Assembly: GCA_037576195.1 (NCBI GenBank)
Contig: CM075101.1
Coordinates: 1,922,001 to 1,986,000, forward strand
Reading direction: 5' to 3'
Source of the DNA: Phytoseiulus persimilis
Lineage: Eukaryota > Arthropoda > Arachnida > Mesostigmata > Phytoseiidae
Length of the DNA stretch: 64,000 bases
Of this stretch, positions 2,264 through 63,129 are shown piece after piece (position 1 is the stretch's first letter; every line of letters begins with the position of its first letter). Made by a program: the position numbers and the translations under genes. The notes under the pieces were generated by a model, which did not search any database, was not told the origin of the DNA, and saw nothing but the letters and a program-made list of their open reading frames with translations.

Positions 2264-2639
2264 TGATAAGCCTTTTGGGCCTGGCTCTAGCTTCTTTGCG
2301 GCTGGATGAGAAGATCGGTGGCGCGTACAAGACTTGCCTAGAGACGACGGCTATCGAATGAAAACGACAATTCTGGTGGACAGAATGTTTGGCTCCCCCA
2401 ACACACTGAAGTTTTATTCCGGCTTTTATAGTCACTGACCGGGGAGAGTTACGGGCGAACACCGACGTTTGACGTCAGTCTACAGGCGTCCGATTTCTAT
2501 CTCAGTGATCTACAGTATCGCCTGTGCGCGGTTGATCATGCTCAGAGTTCACTGACGCTTCGCTTGCTCGAATGGCGTCTTCCCTGATTACCAAAACTGT
2601 GCCGACGACTGCTCTGGGTAAAACATCAAATACTCAACA
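2264..2639 (-). repeat. 3' LTR of the family A array
   Basis: 376-bp LTR, TGATAAGCC to CTCAACA on the plus strand. In the sense (minus) direction it holds a TATAAAAG box at 2423-2430 and an AATAAAA signal at 2412-2418, so both promoter and poly(A) signals are visible. A purine-rich tract (minus strand AGGAGGGAGC) adjoins it at about 2640-2649. It differs from the middle LTR at about one position. Confidence 0.93.
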
Positions 2640-2845
2640 GCTCCCTCCTACACAGAACGGTCGCTTGCTGAACATAGCCGGAACCTTCCGATGTGGGGAA
2701 CATTGCATGTGACATTACTCGGATGCGCGATTTCGCGATTACAGATCTCTTCAGCGGAAGCATCTATCGAACATGCAATGTGTAGAGACTTCACTAGATA
2801 CTTTATCAGTTCAATGGTTCGAATTCTATAGAGAAACTTCAAGCT

Positions 2846-2863
2846 GATGTCTGTCTAGACATC
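2846..2863. promoter_or_regulatory. inverted repeat upstream of antisense gene AS1
   Basis: A perfect 7-bp inverted repeat, GATGTCT-GTCT-AGACATC, lies about 90 bp before the AS1 TATA box and is repeated in the second copy near 10742. Such a palindrome could bind a dimeric regulator; this is inference from position only. Confidence 0.3.
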
Positions 2864-2934
2864 TTTGTCGCGAAATTTGCTTTCGATTGAAGTGACATAC
2901 GACCGTATCTTGAGACAAACTCTCGCCAAAATCG

Positions 2935-2943
2935 TATAAAAGG
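2935..2943 (+). promoter_or_regulatory. TATA box driving antisense gene AS1 (family A)
   Basis: TATAAAAGG on the plus strand, opposite to the retrotransposon's own direction, with the AS1 ATG 64 bp downstream of the T. An initiator-like TCACAC lies about 30 bp after the box, the usual spacing for RNA polymerase II. The same box occurs at 10831-10839 in the second copy. Confidence 0.65.
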
Positions 2944-2998
2944 GGTTGCTCTCGAGCACTCGATCGTCACACTCGTTGAGTTGTGACTTCGCCTTGCG

Positions 2999-3534
2999 AT
3001 GTCAGACAGGATGGAAAATCCACGCCGCCACCAAGTCGCTGTCATCGAGTTGACGCAAAACGAAGTCCTCGTGATCCTGAGGCGCTTACGCGCTCTTCTG
3101 GCCAGGATCAGAGAACGACCAGGGACGTTTTTTCTGGTTTCAGCCGCCATCATCGGAGCGATACAATGTCTCCGCATGTTGTTCGGTAAGTCCTTCAACC
3201 ATAAGTTACAAGTTACAATCACCGATCTGAACGACCGGATCGGACAGGTTTCACCCCCTTTTTTGAATTGGTGCCATTATCTAAAACAAGCGTTCCGTTT
3301 TTTTTTGTACCAGAACCAAGTGGGCTGCCGCCCTTGGTGCAGTTGGAGGAAATCCTCTGGGAGCAAGTCGACCTAGGTCGATACCTGTGTGAGAGGCTCA
3401 CCAACTACTGGGTGTGTCTGTCAAGGGAGACACGCAGGTGTCTTCTGTTGAGAGTGGAACGACCGGTGCCCCCCCCTGGCAGTGTGTTCGAGACCTGCCA
3501 GGGGGTTGCAAGTGTTCGTGGAGATCTGCGGTGA
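2999..3534 (+). CDS. AS1, antisense membrane protein, family A copy 1 (two exons)
   Basis: Encoded opposite to gag-pol, between pol and the 3' LTR. Exons 2999-3185 and 3314-3534 give about 135 residues. The intron 3186-3313 starts GTAAGT and ends TTTTTTTGTACCAG, phase 1. Layout by eye: a basic N-terminal stretch of about 43 residues, one hydrophobic segment at about 44-62, then a roughly 73-residue domain with four cysteines. The pattern YxCxR...WVC...ETxxC matches AS1 of family B, whose intron has the same phase and position. The T-tract length difference between the two array copies falls inside this intron, as expected if it is removed. A TATA box precedes it and AATAAA follows. The orientation looks type II (cytosolic N-terminus), which is inferred. 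Function unknown; an envelope-like role is a hypothesis. Confidence 0.72.
3186..3313 (+). other. phase-1 intron of AS1 (family A copy 1)
   Basis: Donor CG|GTAAGT and acceptor T9-GTACCAG|AA. The first exon is 187 nt, leaving one base of a split codon. Copy 2 of the array has ten Ts where this copy has nine. If the intron were not removed, that difference would shift the reading frame; with splicing the two proteins stay equal in length. Confidence 0.7.
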
Positions 3535-3557
3535 CCTCACCGTATATTTATGTCTTG

Positions 3558-3563
3558 AATAAA
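3558..3563 (+). terminator. poly(A) signal after AS1 (family A)
   Basis: AATAAA 24 bases after the AS1 stop codon, on the AS1 strand. It is repeated at 11455-11460 in copy 2. Confidence 0.55.
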
Positions 3564-3718
3564 CGTCTCTTTTACACATACTTTCTGGTATTTACTCGAT
3601 GAGTCTTGCTTCTCATGATGAGTTTAGCTGGGATCTTACTCATGACCATGAATCATTTATCCTCCTGGAGCATGTTTGAAAACATTGGAAAGGGGAGTGG
3701 GAGTCTTGACATCACTCG

Positions 3719-4973
3719 ATGAGCACTGATACATCGAGTGCCACTTCCAACCTTTCTTCCGCCTCTAGAGCTACTTTCTCTCGATCCGTACTCTCCACGA
3801 TGGAGCTCCAAGGGATCGATTATGAATGTTTCATTTCTCGTCAAAGTAGCGAGATGAATGTTCGATCATTTGTTCGGAACTCGCGCGCGGCCCGTGGTGT
3901 GGCGAACTACATGTTGTTTGTGATTGCCGTGTTGTCGGTCGTACTTGGAATTCTGGTCTACTCGGGTATGTTTCAGACGTCGTAGCATATCTTGATTACG
4001 TTTCCGTGAGAGCTGCATTCCAATTTTCCGTTACTCTCCTACAGTTTTCCTCGTAAGCTCCACTTCCACGAAGAGTGAGCGCATGGTTCGCGAGGCCATG
4101 CACCCGCGAAACGCCACGAAACCGCAGTCGGTCGGACTTCCGACAACGGCTGCAACGTCAAAACCGACATCGACCGTGAGGACCTCAACCATTCCGGAAT
4201 CTGTGAGATCCACAACGCCGACTCCAACAACACCAATGCATCGTACCTTCACTGAACAAGTGACTCGAGGGTATTTTCCAACCACGACCGTTCGCGCTGC
4301 CGGACATGGGGAACGTCGTCGAACAACGACTCGTCGTTGGGTTCCGAGTTCCACAACTCCAAGGAATACCCGTTTTTTCGGAACGACTCATCACTGGTAT
4401 GTCGAGCATACGACCGCCGGGCGACGTTCCTATCTCAGGCCGACTCAATCCATTTCATCATCAACTCCTTCTTCGCGGGTCACATCGTCGTTTCTCACGA
4501 CAGCAATTCCCACGGTATCATCTACAACCACCACTCGGTCTTCTTTGACCATTGCCGAGGGTGTTGTTGCCTCGGACCTGCCGCTTACGACAACAGCTCG
4601 GACCCTTCCTTCTACTTCCACAACCAGGCGTCTCACCTCTCCAAAGTCAATCGCGCATTCAATGACAACTGACGCCGCTTCCATATCGACTCTCTCGAGT
4701 TCGACTTCGGAAATGAGCACCGATTCGATTTCATCGACTTTGCCACCCAGGCGATTCGAATTGGATATCCGTGGATATCACTGTTACCAGTTGTCGTATG
4801 TGCGGACCTGCATCTACCGCAGGGATCGACGCTGTGTCGTCATCCCTCTGCACATTCCGACTCCAGATCGCTTGTCAGTTCGAAACTATGATCCAAGTAG
4901 TTTCGCTGCTTTTGGACAAGATGTATCCGAGATACAAAGGCTCTGTTCTAAATTTTCGATCTTCTCTGCTTGA
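3719..4973 (+). CDS. AS2, antisense mucin-like membrane protein, family A copy 1 (two exons)
   Basis: Second antisense gene. Exons 3719-3965 and 4045-4973 give about 391 residues. The 79-bp intron starts GTATGT and ends CTCCTACAG, phase 1, directly after a hydrophobic segment (residues about 64-82) that follows a Ser-rich N-terminus. The second exon codes a long Thr/Ser/Pro-rich, mucin-like stretch, probably O-glycosylated if it is extracellular. It ends with four cysteines in the pattern C...SYxRxC...DRRCV...IxxLC. The same C-terminal pattern ends AS2 of family B. A diverged relic (56792-57445) aligns over more than 500 nt without an indel, which supports coding. AATAAA lies six bases after the stop. 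Function unknown; a surface or envelope-like role is inferred. Confidence 0.74.
3966..4044 (+). other. phase-1 intron of AS2 (family A copy 1)
   Basis: Donor CGG|GTATGT, pyrimidine-rich acceptor TTACTCTCCTACAG. It joins an 88-codon frame ending in a membrane segment to the 296-codon Ser/Thr-rich frame; without splicing the first frame stops 20 bases into the intron. Phase and position relative to the membrane segment are the same as in AS1. Confidence 0.7.
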
Positions 4974-4979
4974 TCGACG

Positions 4980-4985
4980 AATAAA
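4980..4985 (+). terminator. poly(A) signal after AS2 (family A)
   Basis: AATAAA six bases past the AS2 stop; also at 12877-12882 in copy 2 and conserved in the relic near 57350. Confidence 0.55.
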
Positions 4986-5069
4986 GGTTCAAATCTTTGA
5001 ATTTGTAAATAGTGAGACGTGCGTTTTATTATTTGGGGAAAAGCGAGATTCACAAGAAAGAGTTATATC

Positions 5070-5582
5070 TCAAATCTCTTCGGTTGTCGGTCGGTATGGT
5101 CCATCCTCCTGTTCAAGAGGCGGATCAGGCAAGTGAGCGTATGAACGCGCTCGAATTCGTCTGATCCATCTCGTGAGAACGACCAATCCGGCGAGCACCG
5201 AGAACACGTTTGTAACCACAAAGTATATCGACAGGAATTTGAACTAATATCCAATCGTCCGATCAGGATCGGGAACCGGGGGCGATGGCGTCGACGGGTG
5301 CGTATGGTTCAAGTATGGAATCCAAACGTCTTCTCCTCCTACGGCAGTCCTATTCTTGATCAGGCATACAACTTCTCTTGACGCCAATCTGAGGCAGCTC
5401 GCTTCGAGCTCCACGCAGTCGCATGGAAAGTTGTTCTCGTTTGTTTGGGAAATCGTGCATGGCCAGTTCATCTTCTGGCAATCAATGTCGCAGTCGGAGT
5501 ATGTGAAGTACCCCAACGCCCTACTGGCCATCACGCAGACTATGATGAACGTGATCATCATCTTGATCTTGACGGTTTCCAT
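5070..5582 (-). pseudogene. S, sense cysteine-rich type I membrane protein with in-frame TAG, family A copy 1
   Basis: Sense-strand gene whose ATG (5582) lies inside the last codons of pol, in another frame. It encodes a hydrophobic signal-peptide-like N-terminus and a small ectodomain with many cysteines and an NHT glycosylation site. A TAG at 5244-5246 stops it after about 112 residues. The frame then stays open for 57 more codons, which encode a hydrophobic membrane segment and an acidic tail, ending at 5070. The family B protein (32641-33144) is homologous across the whole length without that stop, sharing YFxY, DC, PCT, FPxDC, LASxxVVC and GGxDxWI. The TAG may be a disabling mutation or a leaky stop releasing a soluble form. 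Annotated as pseudogene only because of the stop. Confidence 0.65.
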
Positions 5583-7287
5583 CTGCAAGTGATCCAAGTC
5601 TTTGGAACGTTTCCCTAGGCAGGCACTTCGTCAGAATATCAGCAACGTTCTGTGCTGTCGGGCAATAGTGGATTGTGACTTCTCCGCGCTGTAGTTTCTC
5701 TCGACAGTAGAAATGTCTCACCTCGATGTGCTTTGAGCGCTTGTGGAAGGATAGATTCTCAGCAAGAGCGATCGTCGACTGGTTGTCAACGAGCAACTTT
5801 GGTACGACTGGATGTCCAAGCTCTGCGAGTAAGCGCGCTGTCCAAATCGCGGTCTTGAGTGTCTCAGAGAGGGCCACAAGCTCCGCCTCCATTGAAGAGA
5901 GCGTCACGGACGCTTGGCGGTTGCTTGCCCAAGAAATGACTCCACCTCCGAACCGAATCAATGATCCGGTGATGCTCCGTCTCGTTTGCTCGTCGCCAGC
6001 GAAATCCGCATCGCTGAAACACTCGAGCAGCTCTGGACCGCTCCCCGTGTACCGGGGACCGAAAGTCTCGGTACCTTGGAGGTAGCGCAGCACTTTCAGT
6101 GCGAGATCCCAAAGACGTCTGGTGGGACGATCCAGGAACCTTGAAAGGTATCCTACCACGTAACCGAGGTCAAAACGCGTCGCAATCGTGAGGTACATCA
6201 AACCACCAACGATTGAACGATACGGCAGTTCTGGCTCGTCTTCGTCACTGGGATTCGACTTGTAGCTGTTGTCCATTGGGACTGCTGTTTCCTTGCATTT
6301 TGACATCTGGAATCTGTCTAGCAGTTCTTGGATATACTTTGATTGGTGGACACGAATGACGGAGTTGTCATCTGATGATTCGACATGTAGACCGAGAAAG
6401 AACTCTAACTTCCTGGAAGTGATTTCGAACTCCTTACCGAGGTTCTCGAGAAACTCCTGCACGACCTTCTGGTCAGATCCCGCCGTCAATCCATCGTCAA
6501 CGTACAGGGCAACCAAAATTCGTTTTGGGCCAATTGTGAAGTACACGCAAGGATCAGCTTGGCTCTGTGTGAGTCCAAGTCCTGTCAGAACCTGGTCGAT
6601 CTTCAGGTTCCAAGCCCTTGATGCCTGACGAAGCCCGTAGACCGCCTTCAAGAGTTTGCAGACTCGATTTGTTCCATCTTCGAACCCTTTTGGTTGGTTC
6701 GTGTAGATTTCTTCCGATAGTTCCGAGTGCAGAAATGCTGTCTTAACGTCGAATTGGTATAGCTTCAATTTCTCCCTGGCAGCTATTGATAGAATTGTTT
6801 TGATGGTATCGAACCTAGCTACAGGCGAGTAGAGCTCTGTGAAATCTATACCTGGACGTTGGCTGAATTCTTGAATGACCCATTTTGCACGGAACCTCTC
6901 GATGTTACCTAGGGCGTCTTTCTTTGCTTTGAAGATCCATCGATTCCCAACCGTGCGTTTGCCTCTCGGAAGTTCGGTGAGCTCCCAAACCTTGTGGAAA
7001 TCGAGCGACGCCATCTCCTCTGCCATTGCACTAAGCCACTGTTGGCTGTAATTGGACTTGTGAACATCTTCCATACATGTTGGTTCGTCAACCAAATTAT
7101 TTACACCGGTGCTTACTGTTTCGCTGACACACATCGCAACGTGTGCGCTGCCGGCCTGGTACCTCTCTGGGGGACGCAACTTGGATCGATCTCGTAGCTC
7201 GTATCTCCCGCGCCGTTCGTTGCGTTTTTCACTTTGGGCAGCCGCTCCTGTGGCGCCATGTCCTTCATTCGAGGATTCTCTTTCCGG
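5521..7287 (-). pseudogene. pol: copia reverse transcriptase-RNase H, family A copy 1
   Basis: C-terminal part of the A polyprotein. RT begins with the typical copia block NRWIFKAK and has YVDDG as catalytic motif. RNase H carries DADFAGD, and MEAELVALSE and the KRSKHIEVRHFY block are present. It follows the integrase part in the same frame after the TAG at 7288-7290. The end of the frame overlaps gene S by about 60 nt. Apart from the upstream TAG and the integrase insertion this half looks intact. Confidence 0.9.
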
Positions 7288-10071: not shown

Positions 10072-10142
10072 CGTGATGCTGAACTGTGACTTCCTTGATT
10101 CACCGATGTATACTTACGCCACCGACCCGCTCAACCGGAGTG

Positions 10143-10159: not shown

Positions 10160-10535
10160 TGATAAGCCTTTTGGGCCTGGCTCTAGCTTCTTTGCGGCTG
10201 GATGAGAAGATCGGTGGCGCGTACAAGACTTGCCTAGAGACGACGGCTATCGAATGAAAACGACAATTCTGGTGGAGAGAATGTTTGGCTCCCCCAACAC
10301 ACTGAAGTTTTATTCCGGCTTTTATAGTCACTGACCGGGGAGAGTTACGGGCGAACACCGACGTTTGACGTCAGTCTACAGGCGTCCGATTTCTATCTCA
10401 GTGATCTACAGTATCGCCTGTGCGCGGTTGATCATGCTCAGAGTTCACTGACGCTTCGCTTGCTCGAATGGCGTCTTCCCTGATTACCAAAACTGTGCCG
10501 ACGACTGCTCTGGGTAAAACATCAAATACTCAACA
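10160..10535 (-). repeat. middle LTR shared by the two family A units
   Basis: 376 bp, acting as 5' LTR for the left unit and 3' LTR for the right unit. Compared by eye it differs from the left LTR at about one base, and from the right LTR at about six positions including an insertion. Confidence 0.93.
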
Positions 10536-10894
10536 GCTCCCTCCTACACAGAACGGTCGCTTGCTGAACATAGCCGGAACCTTCCGATGTGGGGAACATT
10601 GCATGTGACATTACTCGGATGCGCGATTTCGCGATTACAGATCTCTTCAGCGGAAGCATCTATCGAACATGCAATGTGTAGAGACTTCACTAGATACTTT
10701 ATCAGTTCAATGGTTCGAATTCTATAGAGAAACTTCAAGCTGATGTCTGTCTAGACATCTTTGTCGCGAAATTTGCTTTCGATTGAAGTGACATACGACC
10801 GTATCTTGAGACAAACTCTCGCCAAAATCGTATAAAAGGGGTTGCTCTCGAGCACTCGATCGTCACACTCGTTGAGTTGTGACTTCGCCTTGCG

Positions 10895-11431
10895 ATGTCA
10901 GACAGGATGGAAAATCCACGCCGCCACCAAGTCGCTGTCATCGAGTTGACGCAAAACGAAGTCCTCGTGATCCTGAGGCGCTTACGCGCTCTTCTGGCCA
11001 GGATCAGAGAACGACCAGGGACGTTTTCTCTGGTTTCAGCCGCCATCATCGGAGCGATACAATGTCTCCGCATGTTGTTCGGTAAGTCCTTCAACCATAA
11101 GTTACAAGTTACAATCACCGATCTGAACGACCGGATCGGACAGGTTTCACCCCCTTTTTTGAATTGGTGCCATTATCTAAAACAAGCGTTCCGTTTTTTT
11201 TTTGTACCAGAACCAAGTGGGCTGCCGCCCTTGGTGCAGTTGGAGGAAATCCTCTGGGAGCAAGTCGACCTAGGTCGATACCTGTGTGAGAGGCTCACCA
11301 ACTACTGGGTGTGTCTGTCAAGGGAGACACGCAGGTGTCTTCTGTTGAGAGTGGAACGACCGGTGCCCCCCCCTGGCAGTGTGTTCGAGACCTGCCAGGG
11401 GGTTGCAAGTGTTCGTGGAGATCTGCGGTGA
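10895..11431 (+). CDS. AS1, antisense membrane protein, family A copy 2
   Basis: Second copy, exons 10895-11081 and 11211-11431, with an intron of 129 bp containing ten Ts before the acceptor. One amino-acid change (Phe to Ser) lies in the hydrophobic segment. Here the unspliced frame also happens to stay open because of the extra T, giving an alternative 178-residue product; in copy 1 that read-through frame is lost. The TATA box and AATAAA signals are retained. Confidence 0.7.
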   Translation: MSDRMENPRRHQVAVIELTQNEVLVILRRLRALLARIRERPGTFSLVSAAIIGAIQCLRMLFGKSFNHKLQVTITDLNDRIGQVSPPFLNWCHYLKQAFRFFFVPEPSGLPPLVQLEEILWEQVDLGRYLCERLTNYWVCLSRETRRCLLLRVERPVPPPGSVFETCQGVASVRGDLR

Positions 11432-11615
11432 CCTCACCGTATATTTATGTCTTGAATAAACGTCTCTTTTACACATACTTTCTGGTATTTACTCGATGAG
11501 TCTTGCTTCTCATGATGAGTTTAGCTGGGATCTTACTCATGACCATGAATCATTTATCCTCCTGGAGCATGTTTGAAAACATTGGAAAGGGGAGTGGGAG
11601 TCTTGACATCACTCG

Positions 11616-12870
11616 ATGAGCACTGATACATCGAGTGCCACTTCCAACCTTTCTTCCGCCTCTAGAGCTACTTTCTCTCGATCCGTACTCTCCACGATGG
11701 AGCTCCAAGGGATCGATTATGAATGTTTCATTTCTCGTCAAAGTAGCGAGATGAATGTTCGATCATTTGTTCGGAACTCGCGCGCGGCCCGTGGTGTGGC
11801 GAACTACATGTTGTTTGTGATTGCCGTGTTGTCGGTCGTACTTGGAATTCTGGTCTACTCGGGTATGTTTCAGACGTCGTAGCATATCTTGATTACGTTT
11901 CCGTGAGAGCTGCATTCCAATTTTCCGTTACTCTCCTACAGTTTTCCTCGTAAGCTCCACTTCCACGAAGAGTGAGCGCATGGTTCGCGAGGCCATGCAC
12001 CCGCGAAACGCCACGAAACCGCAGTCGGTCGGACTTCCGACAACGGCTGCAACGTCAAAACCGATATCGACCGTGAGGACCTCAACCATTCCGGAATCTG
12101 TGAGATCCACAACGCCGACTCCAACAACACCAATGCATCGTACCTTCACTGAACAAGTGACTCGAGGGTATTTTCCAACCACGACCGTTCGCGCTGCCGG
12201 ACATGGGGAACGTCGTCGAACAACGACTCGTCGTTGGGTTCCGAGTTCCACAACTCCAAGGAATACCCGTTTTTTCGGAACGACTCATCACTGGTATGTC
12301 GAGCATACGACCGCCGGGCGACGTTCCTATCTCAGGCCGACTCAATCCATTTCATCATCAACTCCTTCTTCGCGGGTCACATCGTCGTTTCTCACGACAG
12401 CAATTCCCACGGTATCATCTACAACCACCACTCGGTCTTCTTTGACCATTGCCGAGGGTGTTGTTGCCTCGGACCTGCCGCTTACGACAACAGCTCGGAC
12501 CCTTCCTTCTACTTCCACAACCAGGCGTCTCACCTCTCCAAAGTCAATCGCGCATTCAATGACAAATGACGCCGCTTCCATATCGACTCTCTCGAGTTCG
12601 ACTTCGGAAATGAGCACCGATTCGATTTCATCGACTTTGCCACCCAGGCGATTCGAATTGGATATCCGTGGATATCACTGTTACCAGTTGTCGTATGTGC
12701 GGACCTGCATCTACCGCAGGGATCGACGCTGTGTCGTCATCCCTCTGCACATTCCGACTCCAGATCGCTTGTCAGTTCGAAACTATGATCCAAGTAGTTT
12801 CGCTGCTTTTGGACAAGATGTATCCGAGATACAAAGGCTCTGTTCTAAATTTTCGATCTTCTCTGCTTGA
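11616..12870 (+). CDS. AS2, antisense mucin-like membrane protein, family A copy 2
   Basis: Exons 11616-11862 and 11942-12870, with the same intron and phase as copy 1. Two amino-acid differences from copy 1 are visible in the Ser/Thr-rich region (Thr to Ile, Thr to Asn), and the cysteine-rich C-terminus is unchanged. The frame is fully open. Confidence 0.72.
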
Positions 12871-12966
12871 TCGACGAATAAAGGTTCAAATCTTTGAATT
12901 TGTAAATAGTGAGACGTGCGTTTTATTATTTGGGGAAAAGCGAGATTCACAAGAAAGAGTTATATC

Positions 12967-13458
12967 TCAAATCTCTTCGGTTGTCGGTCGGTATGGTCCA
13001 TCCTCCTGTTCAAGAGGCGGATCAGGCAAGTGAGCGTATGAACGCGCTCGAATTCGTCTGATCCATCTCGTGAGAACGACCAATCCGGCGAGCACCGAGA
13101 ACACGTTTGTAACCACAAAGTATATCGACAGGAATTTGAACTAATATCCAATCGTCCGATCAGGATCGGGAACCGGGGGCGATGGCGTCGACGGGTGCGT
13201 ATGGTTCAAGTATGGAATCCAAACGTCTTCTCCTCCTACGGCAGTCCTATTCTTGATCAGGCATACAACTTCTCTTGACGCCAATCTGAGGCAGCTCGCT
13301 TCGAGCTCCACGCAGTCGCATGGAAAGTTGTTCTCGTTTGTTTGGGAAATCGTGCATGGCCAGTTCATCTTCTGGCAATCAATGTCGCAGTCGGAGTATG
13401 TGAAGTACCCCAACGCCCTACTGGCCATCACGCAGACTATGATGAACGTGATCATCAT
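12967..13458 (-). pseudogene. S, sense membrane protein with in-frame TAG, family A copy 2
   Basis: Same gene as at 5070-5582, with the same TAG (13141-13143) before the membrane segment. The first ATG of copy 1 is lost here by an ATG to ATT change, so the next in-frame ATG (13458, MMITF) is the likely start. The same base change creates a TGA in the overlapping pol frame. Confidence 0.6.
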
Positions 13459-13474
13459 CTTGATCTTGACGGTT

Positions 13475-15184
13475 TCAATCTGCAAGTGATCCAAGTCTTT
13501 GGAACGTTTCCCTAGGCAGGCACTTCGTCAGAATATCAGCAACGTTCTGTGCTGTCGGGCAATAGTGGATTGTGACTTCTCCGCGCTGTAGTTTCTCTCG
13601 ACAGTAGAAATGTCTCACCTCGATGTGCTTTGAGCGCTTGTGGAAGGATAGATTCTCAGCAAGAGCGATCGTCGACTGGTTGTCAACGAGCAACTTTGGT
13701 ACGACTGGATGTCCAAGCTCTGCGAGTAAGCGCGCTGTCCAAATCGCGGTCTTGAGTGTCTCAGAGAGGGCCACAAGCTCCGCCTCCATTGAAGAGAGCG
13801 TCACGGACGCTTGGCGGTTGCTTGCCCAAGAAATGACTCCACCTCCGAACCGAATCAATGATCCGGTGATGCTCCGTCTCGTTTGCTCGTCGCCAGCGAA
13901 ATCCGCATCGCTGAAACACTCGAGCAGCTCTGGACCGCTCCCCGTGTACCGGGGACCGAAAGTCTCGGTACCTTGGAGGTAGCGCAGCACTTTCAGTGCG
14001 AGATCCCAAAGACGTCTGGTGGGACGATCCAGGAACCTTGAAAGGTATCCTACCACGTAACCGAGGTCAAAACGCGTCGCAATCGTGAGGTACATCAAAC
14101 CACCAACGATTGAACGATACGGCAGTTCTGGCTCGTCTTCGTCACTGGGATTCGACTTGTAGCTGTTGTCCATTGGGACTGCTGTTTCCTTGCATTTTGA
14201 CATCTGGAATCTGTCTAGCAGTTCTTGGATATACTTTGATTGGTGGACACGAATGACGGAGTTGTCATCTGATGATTCGACATGTAGACCGAGAAAGAAC
14301 TCTAACTTCCTGGAAGTGATTTCGAACTCCTTACCGAGGTTCTCGAGAAACTCCTGCACGACCTTCTGGTCAGATCCCGCCGTCAATCCATCGTCAACGT
14401 ACAGGGCAACCAAAATTCGTTTTGGGCCAATTGTGAAGTACACGCAAGGATCAGCTTGGCTCTGTGTGAGTCCAAGTCCTGTCAGAACCTGGTCGATCTT
14501 CAGGTTCCAAGCCCTTGATGCCTGACGAAGCCCGTAGACCGCCTTCAAGAGTTTGCAGACTCGATTTGTTCCATCTTCGAACCCTTTTGGTTGGTTCGTG
14601 TAGATTTCTTCCGATAGTTCCGAGTGCAGAAATGCTGTCTTAACGTCGAATTGGTATAGCTTCAATTTCTCCCTGGCAGCTATTGATAGAATTGTTTTGA
14701 TGGTATCGAACCTAGCTACAGGCGAGTAGAGCTCTGTGAAATCTATACCTGGACGTTGGCTGAATTCTTGAATGACCCATTTTGCACGGAACCTCTCGAT
14801 GTTACCTAGGGCGTCTTTCTTTGCTTTGAAGATCCATCGATTCCCAACCGTGCGTTTGCCTCTCGGAAGTTCGGTGAGCTCCCAAACCTTGTGGAAATCG
14901 AGCGACGCCATCTCCTCTGCCATTGCACTAAGCCACTGTTGGCTGTAATTGGACTTGTGAACATCTTCCATACATGTTGGTTCGTCAACCAAATTATTTA
15001 CACCGGTGCTTACTGTTTCGCTGACACACATCGCAACGTGTGCGCTGCCGGCCTGGTACCTCTCTGGGGGACGCAACTTGGATCGATCTCGTAGCTCGTA
15101 TCTCCCGCGCCGTTCGTTGCGTTTTTCACTTTGGGCAGCCGCTCCTGTGGCGCCATGTCCTTCATTCGAGGATTCTCTTTCCGG
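13475..15184 (-). pseudogene. pol: copia reverse transcriptase-RNase H, family A copy 2
   Basis: Nearly identical to copy 1, with the YVDDG and DADFAGD motifs kept. It ends 19 codons earlier, at a TGA produced by one substitution in the overlap with gene S. The in-frame TAG linking it to integrase (15185-15187) is shared with copy 1. Confidence 0.88.
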
Positions 15185-15915
15185 CTAGGGGCCCGCGGAT
15201 GCTGCTTCTTTACTTGCTGATGCGTTCTCTCTGGTATCCGTTGACGGATTGGCTCCTTCGATCTGTTCTTCGCCGTTGCCTTCAGGCGCTTCTGCTTCGG
15301 CGGCATTCTCTGAGGTGACTCCTCCATCCAGCGGACTGGGAGTGCTCACTTTCACGTCCTTTGTCCTGACGATCTGTCTGGTCTCGGGATACCACACACG
15401 ATAGCTGAGACCATCTTCGTCGATCCCGACAATGTAACCTGGGAATCCTCAGGTGTCCAACTTGTCCTTCTGCGGGGTGCGGTTGTAAAACTTGCACTCG
15501 GTGCCAAATGCTCTGATGAGACTGATGTATGGTTTTCTCCTCATGATCATCTCGTACGGTGTCTTCCCGGTTGATTCGACAAACTTTACGCAATTCGTCG
15601 CGTGGGCGGAAAAGCTCACGGCTTCCGCCCAAAGGTACTTGGGCAGGCCACTGTCGATGAGCATGGTCCTTGCCAGGTCAAGCAACGATCGATTCAAACG
15701 CTCACTTATACCATTAAGTTGGGGGGTAAAAGGAGGGGAGTAACTTACATCAGCTCCGATGGCACTCATGATCTCCTTCACTCTCTGATTTTTGAACTCA
15801 GTTCCTTCATCAGAGTGGAGATGATACAGAGTGAAACCGCTTTGATTCTGGAACCATTTGACGAACTCCGCGATGTGGTCAGGCACTTGATCCTTTGATT
15901 TCAAGAAGTACACTT
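15185..15915 (-). pseudogene. pol: copia integrase core, family A copy 2, extra nonsense codon
   Basis: As copy 1, but with an additional Arg to TGA change at 15449-15451 that cuts the frame after the KDKLDT block. This private stop makes copy 2 more damaged than copy 1. Confidence 0.86.
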
Positions 15916-16227
15916 GTAATTTCGCGCCACTCAATTCTGGTGCGCCTCTACAGAGGGCGCACTGGAAGCTTGGAGAGACGTCTGCTCTCAACGTCAATAC
16001 GCGCTTGCGTGGCGGTCGATAGAGACCGGGAAATTGTGAACTCTAAAAATCGATTCTTCAATTCAAGGTATTTGGTGTTCCACTATCCCTTCTATCCTCC
16101 GGCTCTACTTCGTGCCCACTCCCACTGGGAACCGTGAATAAATTCTGATAAGATAACTTCAATTCAAGTGAGAATCGATCGAGTCCTTTCTGGCCACCGA
16201 ACCTGTAGAAGAGCAACTTATACACTT
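15909..16227. mobile_element. 305-bp insertion in integrase (copy 2)
   Basis: Same insertion, position and 7-bp repeats as in copy 1, so it predates the tandem duplication. Confidence 0.7.
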
Positions 16228-17968
16228 TTCGAAACCGAGCCATGTCGTCAGTCAGCTTGAGAAACAGATTCGCTCCTCCAAGAGATCTCTTGCGCATAGC
16301 GCAGGTGTCCGCGTGTATGTACCCTGGTCTTGGAGCTACCACTTTCCCGGGTTTCGGCCTGTTGCTCGAACAATGCATCTTGCCTTGGGTACATACGTCA
16401 CATTTCACGAAGTCATTGATTATCTCGTATCCTTCGCGGTTCAGCATTTTCCTGAGGGTCTTAACGTTGATGTGAGCGAACATTTCATGTACCGCTTTCA
16501 GACTTACTTTCTTCTTCAGTCCCGCAACGTTTCCCTCCACTGGTTCACTTGCATGGAACACGAACAGTCCATTTTGTTGCTCAGCTTGAACTTCTACGTT
16601 GTCTCGGAGTATGGTGATGGCTTTCTCAGTCACCAAAATGCGAAACTTCTCGTTAAGTAGCTTCGAAACTGAGATGAGATTTCTACGAAGCCTGGGTACG
16701 TACAGAGCGTCCTTCAGACATAGCGTTGCGGTCTTGTTGTCGTTGTTCACTGGCACGATTGCGGTTCCTGACCCCTGTGCACTTAGGGTGTTGGATCCGC
16801 CGAGTGCGACCACTTGGTTGTCTTCGAACGGCTTGTAGTCCGTCATCCATTTCAGGCTGGTTAGCATGTGGTGGGTCGAGCCGCTATCAACAGCAAATAT
16901 CTCTTCAGCACTTGCCTGATTGACTTCGGCTTGCTGGCACTCCACGATCAGGGCTTCAGCAATGTTGGCTTGCGGCGGTAGTGTTCTCGATTGTCCTCTG
17001 CCTCTTCCTCTGCCTCGAAATCCGCCTCTGCGTTGATTCCCGCCTTGTCGGGGAAGTCTGCAGGCTGATTGCATGTGTCCTCTTTGATTGCAGTTGTAAC
17101 ATATCACTTCGGATGACTGCACAGATGTTCTTCGGAAGTTGGATCTTCTGGCGAAGTTTCTTCTCCTGAAGTGTTGATTCCTTGAGGGGTTGAATCGGGA
17201 GAACATCGCTGTGATCTCGTTGACGTCACTTTGGTTCCTTCGAATGGCTTCTCCTTCGATTATATCCGTCAGTGTGTCCAGATGTTTGTCAGAGTCCAGT
17301 CGGGTGCTCCATCCCTGTCGGAACGGTTCCCATGAACTTGGAAGCGCCTCTAGAAGTTTGGAGCACTGGACATCGTCTGGTAAGTTGATTCCAACTGTGT
17401 TGAGTTCGAAGATGACTTTCTTGTAAGCGAGGAGGTTATCGCCAACGGATAGTCCTGGCTGGTATTCGAACGTCATGAACTTCGACAGTGCCAGGCCCTT
17501 CCTTGTGCCTGTTGCACGCGTGAACTTGTTCTTGATTCGGCGCCATATCTCCTGTGCTGCTGTGTTATCTGCGTTGTCGAGGAATAATGATGTGGCGAGA
17601 TTCGGGTGTATCGAGTTGATTAGCACGTACCTCGCAGCTCTGTTTCCGATGGTGTAGTTCTTCATTTGCGTTTTGCCCTCTGGTGTGTTTGCTTGATCTG
17701 GGGCTGGTGGGTTGAGTTTCCCGATGGTTACAGGCCAGGCATACGGTTCTCCATCTAGTACGGATGGCATGACTGTGCGCCATGGCATGTAGTTCTTGCC
17801 GTCTAGTGCTAGGATGATGTTGGTTGCGACTCGTGGTCTTGGTCCACACACGATGGGATCTCCGGATGTGCTGGAGCTGGGTTCTGGATCAACTTCGGGA
17901 CCGTCCAGTCCGTAGTGAACGAAGTCGTGGGGGCCTTGGGCATCTCTGGCGGATTGCTGTCTTGACAT
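16228..17968 (-). pseudogene. gag: copia gag-protease-integrase start, family A copy 2
   Basis: Same domains as copy 1 from ATG 17968: gag, one CCHC knuckle, RG-rich region, protease with DSGSTHHM, pre-integrase. Four amino-acid differences from copy 1 are visible (for example Ile to Met in NYxPWR). It is open up to the shared integrase insertion. Confidence 0.88.
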
Positions 17969-18039
17969 CGTGATGCTGAACTGTGACTTCCTTGATTCAC
18001 CGATGTATACTTACGCCACCGACCCGCTCAACCGGAGTG

Positions 18040-18056
18040 TGTCGTGCTGATAACGC
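18040..18056 (-). other. primer binding site, family A copy 2
   Basis: Same tRNA-Ile-like sequence as at 10143-10159, next to the right LTR. Confidence 0.6.
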
Positions 18057-18433
18057 TGATAAGCCTTTTGGGCCTGGCTCTAGCTTCTTTGCGGCTGGAT
18101 GAGAAGATCGGTGGCGCGTACAAGACTTGCCTAGAGACGACGGCTATTGAATGAAAACGACAATTCTGGTGGACAGAATGTTTGGCTCCCCCAACACACT
18201 GAAGTTTTATTCCGGCTTTTATAGTCACTGACCGGGGAGAGTTACACGGCGAACACCGACGTTTGAGGTCAGTCTACAGGCGTCCGATTTCTATCTCAGT
18301 GATCTACAGTATCGCCTGTGCGCGGTTGATCATGCTCAAAGTTCACTGACGCTTCGCTTGCTCGAATGGCGTCTTCCCTGATTAGCAAAACTGTGCCGAC
18401 GACTGCTCTGGGTAAAACATCAAATACTCAACA
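18057..18433 (-). repeat. 5' LTR of the family A array
   Basis: 377 bp with one inserted base and about five substitutions relative to the other two LTRs. Followed by the AGAGG target duplication. Confidence 0.93.
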
Positions 18434-27644: not shown

Positions 27645-27983
27645 TGTTGGATATTTGGGCTCACTAGCTAGTTGGCGAACAGTCTCAATCTGAAAATGGG
27701 CTGAAGATCACGGCACAAAATAAACAGACAGAGTTTCGGTTAGAAACATCTAGCTCCTCAGAGCTGTGCTTTATCAGCTCTGGTATATATACCCAGGGGA
27801 AAGTACCGTAACAGGTGGTAAGCAGATCCGAAGCTGGGTTGCCTTCGGATCTGTGTCACGACATGCGAATGCAATTCTCCGAAGTGTCAGAGGTGAACTT
27901 CGTGTTCACCTCTACCTCTGACCACTGACCGTAATCACACTGACGGGTTTCAGATACCCGCAATATGGCTAAATAATGCATCA
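27645..27983 (-). repeat. 3' LTR of copia B
   Basis: 339 bp; in the sense direction starts TGATGCATTATT and ends CCAACA, with a TATATATACC core. Directly flanked inside by the polypurine tract at 27984-27992. Confidence 0.93.
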
Positions 27984-28075
27984 TCCCCCTTTAGACGAAA
28001 GCCGAGTGTTGATTACCTAGATTACATTCTACGTATCATGACTACCTGATATCTGTACAGTGTGTTTAACTTTAC

Positions 28076-28765
28076 CTATGACCACTCAAATTTGGGGGGT
28101 TCTGTCCAGTTGTTCGGAGGTGCGTCGCTCCTTCCCTCGTAAATGAATGAATCGAATCCAACATTTCTTCTGATGAAGCGTTTGAAGAAATCAACGCACT
28201 CCACTGGGGCAGGGCATCCCTCCCTTTTGTCTCTTCTGCTCCTGAACAAGAGCATGAAGTTGATGCGGTCAATCAACCACTGGATGATCAGTCCTCGTCC
28301 GATACACTGAATCGTCTTCTTGAAGATCCGGGATTCTCCTCCCCATCTTCGTTGGATTGATCTCTCCGATGGGAGAACTTCGTGGGTCACTGCCATGTAG
28401 AATGACAGCCCGTACAGGTACGCGTCGTAACCTGTGAGTGTGTCAGGTTTGAACTCATCCGTGAGTTCTGCCTCTGCAATCTTGGTTTTGAACCATTGTC
28501 TCAATGGTTCTGGCATGTCCTCTATCCCATGTGACAGAGCTCTCCGGTCGATGATGTTCCAGTTGTTAATATACTGGCCTCCAAGGAAAGTATTCGTATT
28601 CTTTCCTGATAGGTGAAGTGATGAGTCGATCTTACACTCACCAGATTCACATCTGCATGCCATGAGTCCGTCAAGATCGTTTACCTCTGGGAGGTGTGCG
28701 AAACGTAGTGCTAATTTGTTGTAGCGGATGCGGTGTGATGAGATGTCCAACTGGGGTGATGCCAT
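28076..28765 (-). CDS. gene X, unknown protein of copia B
   Basis: Open frame of about 229 residues from ATG 28765 (MASPQLDISS), on the sense strand between the 3' LTR and the AS1 promoter. I do not recognise a family. Visible features are a cysteine cluster CRCESGEC near residue 40, no obvious signal peptide, scattered charged residues, and a basic segment FRSRRDKREG. Family A has no counterpart; it has only about 360 bp at this place. Translation would need a spliced or internal transcript. A CTGTAG acceptor-like site lies just before the ATG. The intact length in an otherwise damaged element suggests a real gene, but there is no homology support. Confidence 0.5.
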   Translation of the reverse strand: MASPQLDISSHRIRYNKLALRFAHLPEVNDLDGLMACRCESGECKIDSSLHLSGKNTNTFLGGQYINNWNIIDRRALSHGIEDMPEPLRQWFKTKIAEAELTDEFKPDTLTGYDAYLYGLSFYMAVTHEVLPSERSIQRRWGGESRIFKKTIQCIGRGLIIQWLIDRINFMLLFRSRRDKREGCPAPVECVDFFKRFIRRNVGFDSFIYEGRSDAPPNNWTEPPKFEWS

Positions 28766-29341
28766 GATGAAGACTTTTCTACAGGTTTCAGAGCACAAAA
28801 TTCACTATGGAAGGTTGACGTCTTACTACCTCGAAGGTTTTCTTCAGTATGAGCTTGTCTTTGAACTTTTCTGCTTTATACGAACTGCCCTCTATGGGTC
28901 AAAGGCCGGGCTGTGGTGTGCCCCCTGAACGTGTTGTTCGGCTGTTCAAAGCATTCTTTATGTTCTCACGAGTGTTCGATACCGACGAGTAGGTACTAAC
29001 GCGAGACCGCTGTTTTCTATCTCTTTGAAAACAGCATCTTTGTTATTAGAGGCACTCGTGTATATGTTCTCTTGTTTTTCCGAGTCCGAGTCGCTCAAGT
29101 TCTAAGCACTCAATCCTCTCATCGATATTTCTACAGTAGATTTGTCTAAATAGTCTCGTTTATCGGAATTTTTCAGTCGAGAACTGCTTGTTCTGTTCCG
29201 ACATTGGAATCTAGGCTACTAATCATAACGAACGATTAGAGGGGGAAAGTCTAGACCCTTTATAACCAGTATCTGAGGTCATGAGGCCATTACAACTCCT
29301 CACGAACTCTGGTCAAACGCTCGTTTGGTCTCTACTGCATC
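28766..29341. promoter_or_regulatory. divergent intergenic region between gene X and AS1 (copia B)
   Basis: About 575 bp without a gene. A TATAA (TTTATAACC) at 29261-29265 lies 80 bp before the AS1 ATG, the same relative place as the TATAAAAGG of family A, though the match to a TATA box is weaker. Confidence 0.4.
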
Positions 29342-31006
29342 ATGGATCCGAACCAATTGCCGTACAGTGTCGTTCCATCACCATCACCACCGCCTCGCCT
29401 CAATCATCCTCCAGGTATTCAATCTCCCGTTCCAATGAACTACACTGGTTATCGTCTTCCGGTGCCAGTTAATGTTCATGGGGTTCCTATGCCTGTTCCT
29501 GTGACACCTGGTCAAATGATTGTTCACCCCAGCAACGATGGGAACGTTGTGACTGTGAACGTTCAGGAATCAGGACTCGTGTCTGAGTATGGGAAATTAC
29601 TCATGGATCGACTTGTTCAAATGGAGAATGCAGTCTCCATTTATCGAAGTGAAGCTCTCGCCATCCCCAATTCAAACATTGATATTGGAGTGCGTCATGA
29701 GGAAGTCAAAATTCTTTGCTCCAATCTCGACACCTATGCCGATAATTTCTCCAGTCTTCTTACTCAGCTCAATGCATTTGCTAAGTGTGTTCCCAAGACT
29801 GCCGCTCTTGATGAGGTCATCAAGTCCATGGGTCAAATTCATGATCAGGTACAGGACCAAGGATTGGCCATCAAAATGACTCGTACAAGTCATAGTGGAC
29901 TCTCTGATCGTCAAACTGAATTTGCGTCAAAAATGGCCACAATCGAACAGATTCAACTTGTCCATGAAATGATTGCCAGTGTCCGTACTGACGTTGCCAA
30001 GGTTGTAAGTCAGGTTGGAGTCATGTCCTCCAAAGATCGTTCTCCCGACTCATCCACCACGGGGAATGTTGATTCCCTGACGCGAAGCATTGCTGAATTG
30101 AGGGACAACATTCATCGTCTTGAGAACAAGATCATCACGGTCGATAAGTCAGCCAAGAAGCATTCTGAGATAAACTCAAGAAACATCAATGAGGCGCTTA
30201 CCAAGATTACACTCACCGAGTGCTCACTCAAGTCTCATGATGATGCCAGCAAGATGAACTGGGCAGCGAACTCGGGAAATCTCCAAGAAGTTCGCGATCA
30301 ACTCGCACGTAATAGTGCCGCCGTTGCCAACATCCTGGTGTCGCTGAACGAAATCTCAGCACATGTGGACCGAGTTTACACTATGTGTAATAACTTACAA
30401 ACGAACCAGTCATCGTTCGAAGAAGAGCATGAAGATATACCACCACCGCCGCCTGCTCGAAGGAGATTCTTGATCCGTCTATTTCAAGAACTTCTGAACT
30501 ATGTTCTCACATGCAGAGGGTTCTGCATTTTTCTCATTCTTCTATTGATTATGGGTATGTATTTCACCATTCTAGAACTATCAGTAATGAATTTCTAATG
30601 GGGTCTTATAAATTAAATCTCTTTCCTTCTAGTTGGAAGTATCTCCTTCGGCATTTACCGCATTCATCATGCCGGTGTTGTTGTGGTGACCTCCTCAGCA
30701 ATACCTGACCTCTCCGATGACGACTCAATCGTTTTCGCAAGTGATCCACCCCCAGTGATTCAGCAGCGTCCTGTGAACCGCACAGGACTCGTCAAGAAGT
30801 CCGATTCGGAAAATGTTGTGCTTCGCGACTATGGATGCAAACGTAACCCTCAGGTCTCTGGATGGATATGTATTCATGAGACCTCTAAGGCATGCTTGAG
30901 TGTTCCCGGCAATAAGCCAGTTACCCAAACAGTCCTGTGTACTCACACTATTGACAATAGTGTCTGTGGTGCTGGCAAGCCCACCACTGTTTGTAGTCGT
31001 GTTTGA
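29342..31006 (+). CDS. AS1, antisense coiled-coil membrane protein, copia B (two exons)
   Basis: Exons 29342-30554 and 30633-31006, about 528 residues. The 78-bp intron starts GTATGT and ends CTTTCCTTCTAG, phase 1. Order by eye: a Pro-rich start, then a long heptad-like region (residues about 75-355) rich in Leu, Asn, Lys and Glu. A PPPPPARRR stretch follows, then one hydrophobic segment at about 383-410, with the intron inside or just after it, and a C-terminal domain with seven cysteines. The pattern YxCxR...WIC...ETxxxCL matches family A AS1, and the intron has the same phase and place. The N-terminus is much longer than in family A. Likely a type II membrane protein able to oligomerise; the role is inferred only. 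Confidence 0.74.
30555..30632 (+). other. phase-1 intron of AS1 (copia B)
   Basis: GTATGT donor, TTTCCTTCTAG acceptor, 78 bp. The unspliced frame ends 44 bases in. Splicing joins ATG-G to TTGGAAGT and continues the frame into the cysteine-rich exon. Confidence 0.72.
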
Positions 31007-31278
31007 TTTTACGCCTGTGGTTAGGCGGTTTTTAATTCGAAACCTCAATCACTTTCAGACCGTCACTTGATCTTTGGAAGTCGACGTCTGTATCTTTTGA
31101 TGAGCTTGATTGTATTGGCAACGAAATAAATCAAAACATTGGCCTGGAGATACGGAATCTTGTATTTCTGTGTTTTCGTAACACACGATGGCTCCTCCCC
31201 CTTTTCTCTATAGTCGGTAATACTCTGTTTCGTTCTGGCAGTTACTGCCATTCATCGGCCTTCCAATCAGTCGTTAGG

Positions 31279-32589: not shown

Positions 32590-32640
32590 AAAGTAAATTT
32601 TCAATTTGAACAATGAGAGGGTCATTTATTTTACTATGAA

Positions 32641-33144: not shown

Positions 33145-33280
33145 CTTTTCTGTAACCGGCAAGATTTCGTAAGCGGACGAATTGAGTTTCTGGTAGGGCT
33201 TTCGTTCCCAAATCAGAGATATTCAATTCTGAAGGGCAATGGATTATCTTGAAATCTCCATTTTCAATCTTTTCTCTCAA
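33074..33280 (-). pseudogene. pol: copia B RNase H C-terminus, shifted frame
   Basis: Last part of pol (EKIENGDFKIIHCPSELNIS, then SDLGTKALPETQF), one frame off from the main RT frame. It places a one-base indel near 33280. This frame overlaps the start of gene S by about 70 nt, the same arrangement as in family A. Confidence 0.8.
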
Positions 33281-37504: not shown

Positions 37505-37628
37505 AGAACTTGTTGTGTATGCACCGGAATATCACTTTTTGATCACTTCAAAAGTCACAATCAAGTCTACACAGAGTCACACACTTATACACCGCACTAT
37601 CTGATCAAGAATGTTCGCAGATTCAATC

Positions 37629-37642
37629 GTGCTGATAACGAA
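37629..37642 (-). other. primer binding site of copia B (tRNA-Ile-like)
   Basis: The plus strand next to the LTR reads GTGCTGATAACGAA. The GTGCTGATAACG part equals the family A site, offset by two bases. Confidence 0.55.
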
Positions 37643-47146: not shown

Positions 47147-47257
47147 TTCGTTATTGCGCACGATCGAATCTACGGACACGACGTCTCGGAAAGTACATTG
47201 TGAAAGTGTGTGACTCTCTAGTGAAGTGTCTCATCAGTGCACACACTGACATCGAAG

Positions 47258-63116: not shown

Positions 63117-63129
63117 TGGTGCTGCTTCC

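What the first reader, a model, noticed from the sequence alone, without database searches (positions are those of the whole stretch)
2640..5582. Ambisense membrane-protein cassette in copia family A
Sequence: between pol and the 3' LTR lie one sense gene (S) and two plus-strand genes (AS1, AS2), all with one hydrophobic segment and cysteine-rich outer domains. Known: copia-type elements normally stop after RNase H, and plant Sireviruses have a single sense env-like ORF. I know of no animal copia lineage with antisense membrane genes. Inference: an envelope-like surface complex, meaning a copia lineage that became, or was, an enveloped infectious agent.
Basis: partly seen in the sequence, partly recalled or inferred. 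Interest (0 to 1): 0.95.

Follow-up and report, generated by a model that had tools for sequence, protein, structure and literature searches.

The report
Jumping gene with backward-coded surface proteins
A copia-type retrotransposon in what is probably a mite genome carries a matched set of membrane-protein genes, two of them written backwards and split by introns, and one of these is exchanged whole between otherwise near-identical copies, much as flu viruses exchange surface proteins.

Summary
Between pol and the 3' LTR of this copia family lie a sense gene S (type I-like membrane protein) and two antisense genes, AS1 and AS2 (type II-like). In this family both antisense genes have an intron and a C-x8-C-x7-C outer domain; profile comparison suggests they are paralogues. 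The module recurs in diverged families of the same genome: 69 of 70 S-AS2 neighbour relations are convergent, and each of nine sampled families shows at least one antisense frame with the motif. Splice sites persist where the AS1 intron is nearly unalignable. New: AS1 is an exchangeable cassette. Elements 99-100% identical in AS2 and S can carry AS1 of about 50% nucleotide identity; AS1 types have saturated synonymous sites; AS1 and flank trees reject each other. I read it as an envelope-like or cell-to-cell transfer module with AS1 as variable specificity part. The module is near certain; the function is inferred: no fusogen homologue, no transcripts, no relatives found outside this genome. 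In both window units S stops before its transmembrane segment and the AS1 tail is frameshifted; many other copies are open.

The parts
2264..2639 (-). 3' LTR of family A element, unit 1
   Evidence: repeat copies at 2264, 10160, 18057
2935..2941 (+). TATAAAA box, 64 nt before AS1 ATG; near the upstream edge of the exchanged cassette
   Evidence: sequence; TATAAAA/T found 406-473 nt before the exon-2 motif in 25 of 31 rows with the motif, duplicate loci of one element included
2999..3185 (+). AS1 exon 1: basic N-terminus plus transmembrane segment (type II topology by charge)
   Evidence: ORF and hydropathy
3186..3313 (+). AS1 intron (GTAAGT ... T-rich tract, CAG)
   Evidence: splice sites
3314..3534 (+). 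AS1 exon 2: ectodomain with C-x8-C-x7-C; C-terminus frameshifted in the window units
3558..3563 (+). AATAAA after AS1
   Evidence: sequence
3719..3965 (+). AS2 exon 1: cytoplasmic N-terminus plus transmembrane segment
   Evidence: ORF and hydropathy; 35 matches in the genome
3966..4044 (+). AS2 intron (GTATGT ... CTACAG)
4045..4973 (+). AS2 exon 2: S/T-rich mucin-like stalk and C-terminal Cys domain
   Evidence: 55 matches in the genome; open in 17 of 22 copies; alignment A2
4980..4985 (+). AATAAA 6 nt after AS2 stop
5244..5582 (-). S: N-terminal hydrophobic (signal-peptide-like) segment and Cys-rich ectodomain; in this unit a stop precedes the transmembrane segment and tail found in other copies
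5521..7134 (-). copia pol, C-terminal part; S starts inside its end
10160..18433 (-). second unit of the tandem array (99.8% identical to 2264-10535) with the same module: AS1 from 10895, AS2 11616-12870, S about 13141-13479
27645..37980 (-). family B copia element, LTRs 27645-27982 and 37643-37980 (99.4% identical)
29342..30554 (+). family B AS1 exon 1: long coiled-coil-like N-part plus transmembrane segment
30633..31006 (+). family B AS1 exon 2: Cys ectodomain (C-x10-C-x7-C)
31279..32589 (+). family B AS2 (single exon): N-terminal hydrophobic anchor, S/T-rich stalk, C-x8-C-x7-C domain
32641..33144 (-). family B S, 167 aa, 34% identical to family A S

Best explanation
A lineage of copia retrotransposons carries a surface-protein module downstream of pol. 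SHOWN by sequence: S is a sense gene for a type I-like membrane protein; AS1 and AS2 are antisense, type II-like, share a C-x8-10-C-x7-C outer domain and are probably duplicates of one ancestral gene; gene order and convergent orientation are almost always kept across diverged families; AS1 has a consensus 5' splice site directly after the transmembrane exon in 5 of 6 families tested (in family A also AS2); the AS1 unit is exchanged whole between elements. INFERRED: AS1 and AS2 are made from their own promoters as spliced, polyadenylated mRNAs. Because they lie antisense, their introns are not recognised in the sense genomic RNA and so survive reverse transcription; a retroelement can keep intron-bearing genes most easily in this orientation. 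The three proteins act together at a membrane in an extracellular or cell-to-cell step: AS2 as mucin-like attachment stalk, S as small partner whose tail (YxxPhi, PYxxT) links to trafficking, AS1 as variable specificity part kept in many ancient alleles and swapped by template switching between co-packaged genomes. My confidence is about 0.97 that the module is real and has been under selection, about 0.5 that its role is envelope-like or cell-to-cell transfer.
For: Conserved open frames and genome-wide copies. S-AS2 convergent in 69 of 70 neighbour relations, AS1 5' of AS2 on the same strand in 67 of 69. AS1-AS2 profile match, probability 86, E 5e-6 for one comparison. Motif in window frames of 60 codons or more: 7 of 8 hits are AS genes; 20 mononucleotide shuffles gave 0-3 hits. 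Constraint: AS1 exon 2 dN/dS 0.16 in the 28 of 136 pairs where it could be computed; AS2 0.41 and 0.45; S 0.27; pol 0.24. 5' splice site in 25 of 31 rows although intron identity between most AS1 types is 21-41%. Cassette exchange: L015 vs L019, S and AS2 99-100%, AS1 exon 1 37%, exon 2 51%; edges near the TATA box and shortly before AS2 ATG; 65 of 75 pairs with flanks at least 93% identical have AS1 exon 2 below 75%, 2 at 75-90%, 8 at 90% or more; trees reject each other, AU p 1.9e-8 and 2.6e-67. S tail YxxPhi and PYxxT in 7 of 7 untruncated S; AS1 N-side charge +3 to +5 in the AS1 exons with a segment above threshold (5 of 6 families). S model ordered, block pLDDT 90-97 over residues 31-90.
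Against: No Pfam or PDB-sequence relative of S, AS1 or AS2, so no recognisable fusogen; S's ectodomain (about 85 aa) is small for one. No RNA evidence. Promoter evidence is thin: a TATA box in the 150 nt before family A AS1 only, none before the other seven antisense starts checked. dN/dS for AS2 is about that of short non-coding controls (0.44-0.82 in the 106-nt gap, 0.45-0.67 in the intron), and mirror frames also score low, so the open-frame counts carry the weight. The N-terminal segment of S passes my hydropathy threshold in 4 of 7 untruncated S only, no signal-peptide predictor was run, and AS2 topology is weakly marked by charge outside family A (N-side 0 to +1; no segment above threshold in L069). 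At least 23 of 93 AS2 places have no S match within 2.5 kb and were not inspected. No relatives outside this genome were found. Both window units are damaged in S and AS1. The L075/L076 clade shows one antisense gene only. Family B, L070 and L074 AS2 have no intron, so intron protection cannot explain the orientation of every antisense gene.
Confidence: 0.55

Rival explanations
1. The three membrane proteins are not for entry. They act inside or on the surface of the element's own host cell, for instance to exclude related elements or to blunt host silencing or immunity. AS1 alleles then mark exclusion groups kept by frequency-dependent selection.
For: Many old AS1 types in near-identical elements fit self/non-self recognition as well as receptor specificity; no fusogen homology.
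Against: S has N-x-S/T sites in 6 of 7 untruncated copies and a YxxPhi tail, and AS2 has a long S/T-rich stalk, which point outside the cell; three co-conserved membrane proteins are many for an exclusion factor.
Confidence: 0.25
2. S is a FAST-like cell-cell fusogen comparable to Drosophila sORF2; AS1 and AS2 are adhesion partners. The element passes capsids directly between cells and has no envelope.
For: S is small, single-pass near its C-end, with a net positive stretch right after the transmembrane segment (+1 to +5 over 15 residues); sORF2 precedent (PMC11952523, abstract and sections 8 and 10 read).
Against: S is 162-183 aa with an ordered ectodomain of about 85 aa rather than about 30, and no myristoylation start; sORF2-like genes there were all sense (PMC11952523, section 10).
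Confidence: 0.12
3. AS1/AS2 are captured host genes, or a separate DNA-level element, that merely ride in copia.
For: Introns and own poly(A) signals look like host genes. At least 23 of 93 AS2 places lack an S match within 2.5 kb; I did not inspect them, so a free-standing source is not excluded.
Against: Where S and AS2 are neighbours they keep order and spacing across diverged families, and both AS genes diversified with the element.
Confidence: 0.06
4. The antisense ORFs are by-products: antisense RNA for regulation, with frames open by chance.
For: Antisense transcripts without protein are known in some LTR elements (PMC7264820, passages read).
Against: AS2 open in one of six frames only, amino-acid conservation across saturated synonymous sites in AS1, conserved Cys spacing across families.
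Confidence: 0.02

Closest known systems
Plant Ty3/gypsy elements with antisense ORFs between pol and 3' LTR (Grande, RIRE2, Retand; PMC7264820, 12 of 19 passages seen; PMC11963269, 12 of 16 passages seen)
   Same: Conserved genes antisense to gag-pol in the same position; own promoter reported for Grande.
   Different: Plant elements with nuclear or putative DNA-binding (TRP28) proteins; here copia, probably animal, membrane proteins, two paralogues with introns. The word 'intron' has 0 occurrences in either text.
Sirevirus env-like ORF of plant copia elements (recalled)
   Same: Copia with an extra membrane-type gene downstream of pol.
   Different: Single sense ORF; no antisense genes.
sORF2 / FAST-like proteins of insect LTR elements (PMC11952523, abstract and sections 8, 10 read)
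   Same: Small single-pass membrane protein of an LTR element without classical Env; basic juxtamembrane region.
   Different: 63-107 aa, about 30-residue ectodomain, all sense, in Metaviridae; S is larger and has two antisense partners.
Bdelloid rotifer LTR elements with ORF3 env-like or small TM ORFs (PMC5408684, 12 of 18 passages seen)
   Same: Invertebrate LTR elements with extra Cys-containing membrane ORFs.
   Different: No antisense gene in the passages seen ('antisense' occurs once in the text, for small RNAs).
Paramyxo/pneumovirus type II attachment proteins (recalled)
   Same: AS2 architecture: N-terminal anchor, mucin-like stalk, compact Cys domain.
   Different: No sequence similarity found.

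Membership tests
Ty1/copia LTR retrotransposon | RVT_2 reverse transcriptase, copia gag and integrase before RT, between LTRs | tested here: met
   family B: RVT_2 E 8.7e-49, rve 5e-5 (below Pfam's cut-off), Retrotran_gag_2 2e-13; family A was not scanned with Pfam, but the 120 listed of 1155 pol relatives all carry PF07727; LTRs
Enveloped retrovirus / errantivirus-type element | env glycoprotein homologous to a known viral fusogen | tested here: not met
   no Pfam family above its cut-off for S, AS1, AS2; no PDB sequence match for AS1/AS2, only unrelated hits at E 0.67-0.73 for S; fold comparison could not be run
Enveloped retrovirus / errantivirus-type element | enveloped infectious particles | not testable with these tools
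   needs experiment
FAST / sORF2-like fusogen | small single-pass membrane protein with basic juxtamembrane region | tested here: met
   S: one segment near the C-end, net positive tail start
FAST / sORF2-like fusogen | ectodomain of about 30 residues; N-myristoylation motif in many members | tested here: not met
   S ectodomain about 85 residues; no MGxxxS/T start in the 8 aligned S proteins, one of them partial
Plant antisense-ORF elements (Tat/Retand) | antisense ORF between pol and 3' LTR | tested here: met
Plant antisense-ORF elements (Tat/Retand) | gypsy pol and TRP28-type antisense protein | tested here: not met
   copia RVT_2; no TRP28 in the Pfam scan
Sirevirus env-like copia | sense env-like ORF downstream of pol | tested here: met
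   S position and topology
Sirevirus env-like copia | RT phylogeny within the Sirevirus clade | not tested
   no RT tree was built; the genome-wide pol search did not complete

The most novel reading that the evidence does not exclude
An animal copia lineage that is in effect an ambisense surface-protein-bearing retroelement: two paralogous, intron-containing type II glycoprotein genes kept on the antisense strand, where introns survive retrotransposition, plus a sense type I partner, forming a multi-protein envelope or cell-transfer complex whose AS1 component exists as many ancient 'serotype-like' alleles reshuffled among genomes by recombination, as in antigenic shift.
Probability: 0.4. Interest if true: 0.95.

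Novelty: new variant of a known kind. Interest (0 to 1): 0.85.

Why it matters
It would be the first case known to me of an LTR element that uses both strands for a set of surface proteins, and a natural example of the antisense-intron trick otherwise known from engineered retrotransposition reporters (recalled). The cassette-like exchange of AS1 implies recombination between elements and long-term balancing selection on a transposon gene, which turns the question 'do transposons have serotypes, and against what?' into one that can be tested in a single genome with dozens of copies.

Tried and rejected
Rejected: chance ORFs; antisense RNA only; fast mutation as the cause of AS1 divergence (flanks 99-100% identical in one pair, AS1 identities nearly two-peaked). 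A spliced S mRNA was considered: CTTGCAG stands directly before S ATG in family A, but other families do not clearly keep it and it may be pol coding sequence; left open. I first took the L075 family to lack antisense genes (strict pattern); a looser pattern found one with a splice site after its transmembrane segment, a choice made after seeing the data; the looser pattern also hits S and other frames, so it is not specific alone.

Led nowhere: protein searches for S and the AS1 domain, no hit at E 0.01; viral contigs with family B AS2, none; arthropod telomere repeat pattern, 0 matches; papers (eight answered searches), none describing such an element in the listings seen. Not obtained: genome-wide pol search and hence an RT tree; fold comparison of the S model; structure of AS1/AS2.

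Host: 181 Mb assembly whose contigs C1-C4 are 28-55 Mb; the best-scoring named mite relative of pol is from the predatory mite Galendromus occidentalis (64% over 57% of the query); higher-scoring named hits at lower identity are from the worms Trichuris and Trichinella and a butterfly.
Full report
WHAT IS THERE. The window (G000:C1:1922001-1986000) is dense in transposable elements. Family A copia stands on the minus strand as a tandem array of three LTRs and two internal regions (2264-18433; units 99.8% identical). Between pol (end at 5521) and the 3' LTR lie S (minus, 5244-5582) and, on the plus strand, AS1 and AS2.

ANTISENSE GENE MODELS. AS1 starts at 2999, 64 nt after a TATAAAA box. Its first exon ends with the transmembrane segment, followed at once by a GTAAGT site; a T-rich tract ending in CAG precedes exon 2; an AATAAA lies at 3558. 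AS2 of family A has the same plan: exon 1 ends with the transmembrane segment, intron 3966-4044, exon 2 with an S/T-rich stalk and a Cys domain, AATAAA 6 nt after the stop. Between most AS1 types the intron is 21-41% identical (55-59% for L011 and L013 against L035; 74-97% within types), yet a GGTRAGT-like 5' site is found in 25 of 31 rows and pyrimidine-CAG sites recur (rows include duplicate loci of one element, and some rows are cut by the locus end). In other families a 5' site stands 1-4 nt after the transmembrane segment in AS1 of A, B, L070, L071 and L075, not in L069 (5 of 6); a 3' site passing my pyrimidine filter was seen in 4 of the 6 (not L069, L070). AS2 shows such a 5' site only in family A; B, L070 and L074 AS2 are open without an intron; L071 AS2 is unresolved.

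POLY(A) AND PROMOTER. An AATAAA/ATTAAA within 150 nt after the stop was seen for 9 of 13 antisense genes other than family A AS1, and for 4 of 8 S genes, against 95 of 2000 random 150-nt stretches of the window; for family A AS1 the scan found none in six copies. The window DNA shows AATAAA where the longer frames of other copies end, so the signal probably overlaps their stop codon (inference). A TATA box was seen before family A AS1 only, in 1 of 8 antisense starts, but there it recurs in 25 of 31 rows.

CONSERVATION. AS2 exon 1 has 35 matches in the genome, AS2 exon 2 55, AS1 40, S 150, which is the scoring limit; all are lower bounds. About 31 S matches are family A; most others are 27-49% identical. 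With family B queries AS2 has 68 and AS1 67 matches. Using 149 S, 93 AS2 and 80 AS1 places, 68 of 149 S have AS2 convergent within 2.5 kb; of 70 S-AS2 relations 69 are convergent, and 66 of the 68 gaps are 250-360 nt. 58 of 149 S have AS1 downstream and opposite within 6 kb (61 relations of that kind, 7 upstream-opposite, 2 downstream-same); 54 of 149 have both; AS1 is 5' of AS2 on the same strand in 67 of 69. AS2 was found beside 26 of the 31 best S matches, 29 of the next 36 and 13 of the 82 weakest; the weakest are too diverged from the AS queries used, or lack the genes. At least 23 of 93 AS2 places have no S match within 2.5 kb; not inspected.

DIVERGED FAMILIES READ DIRECTLY. Family B in the window and loci L069-L077 represent, with A, nine S-bearing groups as I sort them by S (27-34% identical to A's S where aligned; L072 was not in the alignment; L074/L077 and L075/L076 are the same groups; the distances among the others were not measured). 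All nine show at least one antisense frame with the Cys pattern: both genes in A, B, L069, L070, L071, L074; in decayed L072 AS1 by pattern and AS2; one gene in L073; one in L075/L076, the last seen only after I loosened the pattern. In the window 7 of 8 pattern hits in frames of 60 codons or more are AS genes; 20 mononucleotide shuffles gave 0-3 hits. AS1 and AS2 domain profiles match each other (hhalign probability 86, E 5.1e-6), so I take them as paralogues. AS1 of B and L071 share a 266-residue coiled-coil-like region at 27% identity, which family A AS1 lacks.

CONSTRAINT. Nei-Gojobori medians in the coding frame: AS2 exon 1 0.41 (21 copies), AS2 exon 2 0.45 (22), S 0.27 (21), pol end 0.24 (22). 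Against: short non-coding controls also fall below 1 (0.44-0.82, 0.45-0.67) and the mirror frame on the other strand is low, as expected. Frame openness separates them: AS2 exon 2 17 of 22 open, the other five frames 0 of 22 each; AS2 exon 1 15 of 21 against 0 of 21; S 17 of 21, with 8 of 21 in one other frame. AS1 exon 2 (17 copies of the 30 loci with the motif, chosen for a full-length end and to avoid duplicates, so their openness is not independent): median pN 0.27, pS 0.83, dN/dS 0.16 in the 28 of 136 pairs where it is computable; mirror frame 0.25.

THE EXCHANGED CASSETTE. Against the window copy, AS2 and S of most family A copies are 92-99% alike (L024 86% in one part; L029 and L035 65-91%), but AS1 falls far lower. 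L015 and L019, on different contigs, are 99-100% identical from AS2 through S and 37/41/51% in AS1 exon 1/intron/exon 2; their pol end is 96% and the stretch next to the LTR 91%. In the four pairs profiled identity drops within about 20-40 nt of the TATA box and returns shortly before AS2 ATG, more gradually in window-L011. Among 18 elements (153 pairs), 75 pairs have AS2 exon 2 and S at least 93% identical; AS1 exon 2 is below 75% in 65, 75-90% in 2, at least 90% in 8. At an 80% threshold 24 loci (23 elements) fall into 11 AS1 types. For 17 elements the AS1 tree and the AS2+S tree reject each other (AU p 1.9e-8 and 2.6e-67). AS1 types are therefore far older than the elements that now carry them and move as whole transcription units.

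PROTEINS. S (7 untruncated): 7-9 Cys, one transmembrane segment near the C-end, net positive tail with YxxPhi and PYxxT in 7 of 7, N-x-S/T in 6 of 7, an N-terminal segment above threshold in 4 of 7; no signal-peptide predictor was available. Its model has mean pLDDT 78, block means 90-97 over residues 31-90. AS1: a segment above threshold in A (two copies), B, L069 and L070 with N-side charge +3 to +5, so N-in, C-out; none above threshold in the L071 exon as given; L075 was not in that scan. AS2: clear in family A (+3), weaker elsewhere (0 to +1), none above threshold in L069. No known family.

MECHANISM. Shown: sequence features of the gene models, conservation, order, exchange. Inferred: expression, splicing, location, joint function. 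The antisense placement lets introns survive passage through sense RNA; it also gives the element separately controlled genes. Swapping of the AS1 unit is easiest to explain by template switching between two co-packaged RNAs at conserved flanks; DNA-level gene conversion is not excluded. Ancient alleles under amino-acid constraint suggest recognition of something that selects for rarity: a receptor set, host defence, or related elements.

COMPARISON. Antisense genes at this place are known in plant elements, where the proteins are nuclear or putatively DNA-binding (PMC7264820, PMC11963269; passages seen). Small membrane proteins in place of Env are known from insects, all sense (PMC11952523). 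Env-like ORF3s are known in rotifers (PMC5408684, passages). None of the eight answered paper searches listed an animal copia with antisense membrane genes; the library lacks most subscription journals.

CORRECTION TO A COUNT ABOVE. Where the best explanation says '5 of 6 families' for AS1 charge, the scan held six AS1 exons from five families (A twice, B, L069, L070, L071), five of the six exons with a segment above threshold.

Noticed in passing
window 28076-28765 (-): Extra sense-strand ORF (229 aa) between AS1 and the 3' LTR in family B, no Pfam match; L071:163-888 (-) has a 241-aa ORF in a similar place with only weak similarity (E 0.007).
   Followed up: partly
window 2264-18433: Tandem LTR-internal-LTR-internal-LTR array with 99.8% identical units that share the same damage in S and AS1, so the array probably formed after the damage.
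   Followed up: partly
window 54453-57445: Rearranged family A remnant with an inverted repeat of about 800 nt (54533-55338 / 55990-56797, 95% identical).
   Followed up: no
window 18904-19486 and 63126-63622: Inverted repeats of about 400 nt, 44 kb apart, with internal 83-87-nt tandem repeats, possibly the ends of a large element.
   Followed up: no
L075, L076 (minus strand, exon 2 at 2162-2563 in L075): An S-bearing clade with only one antisense gene recognised; may show the state before the AS1/AS2 duplication or a loss.
   Followed up: partly
window 40001-48000: Strong AT skew (0.40 and 0.26) over ORFs that look LINE-like by eye (no family search done).
   Followed up: no
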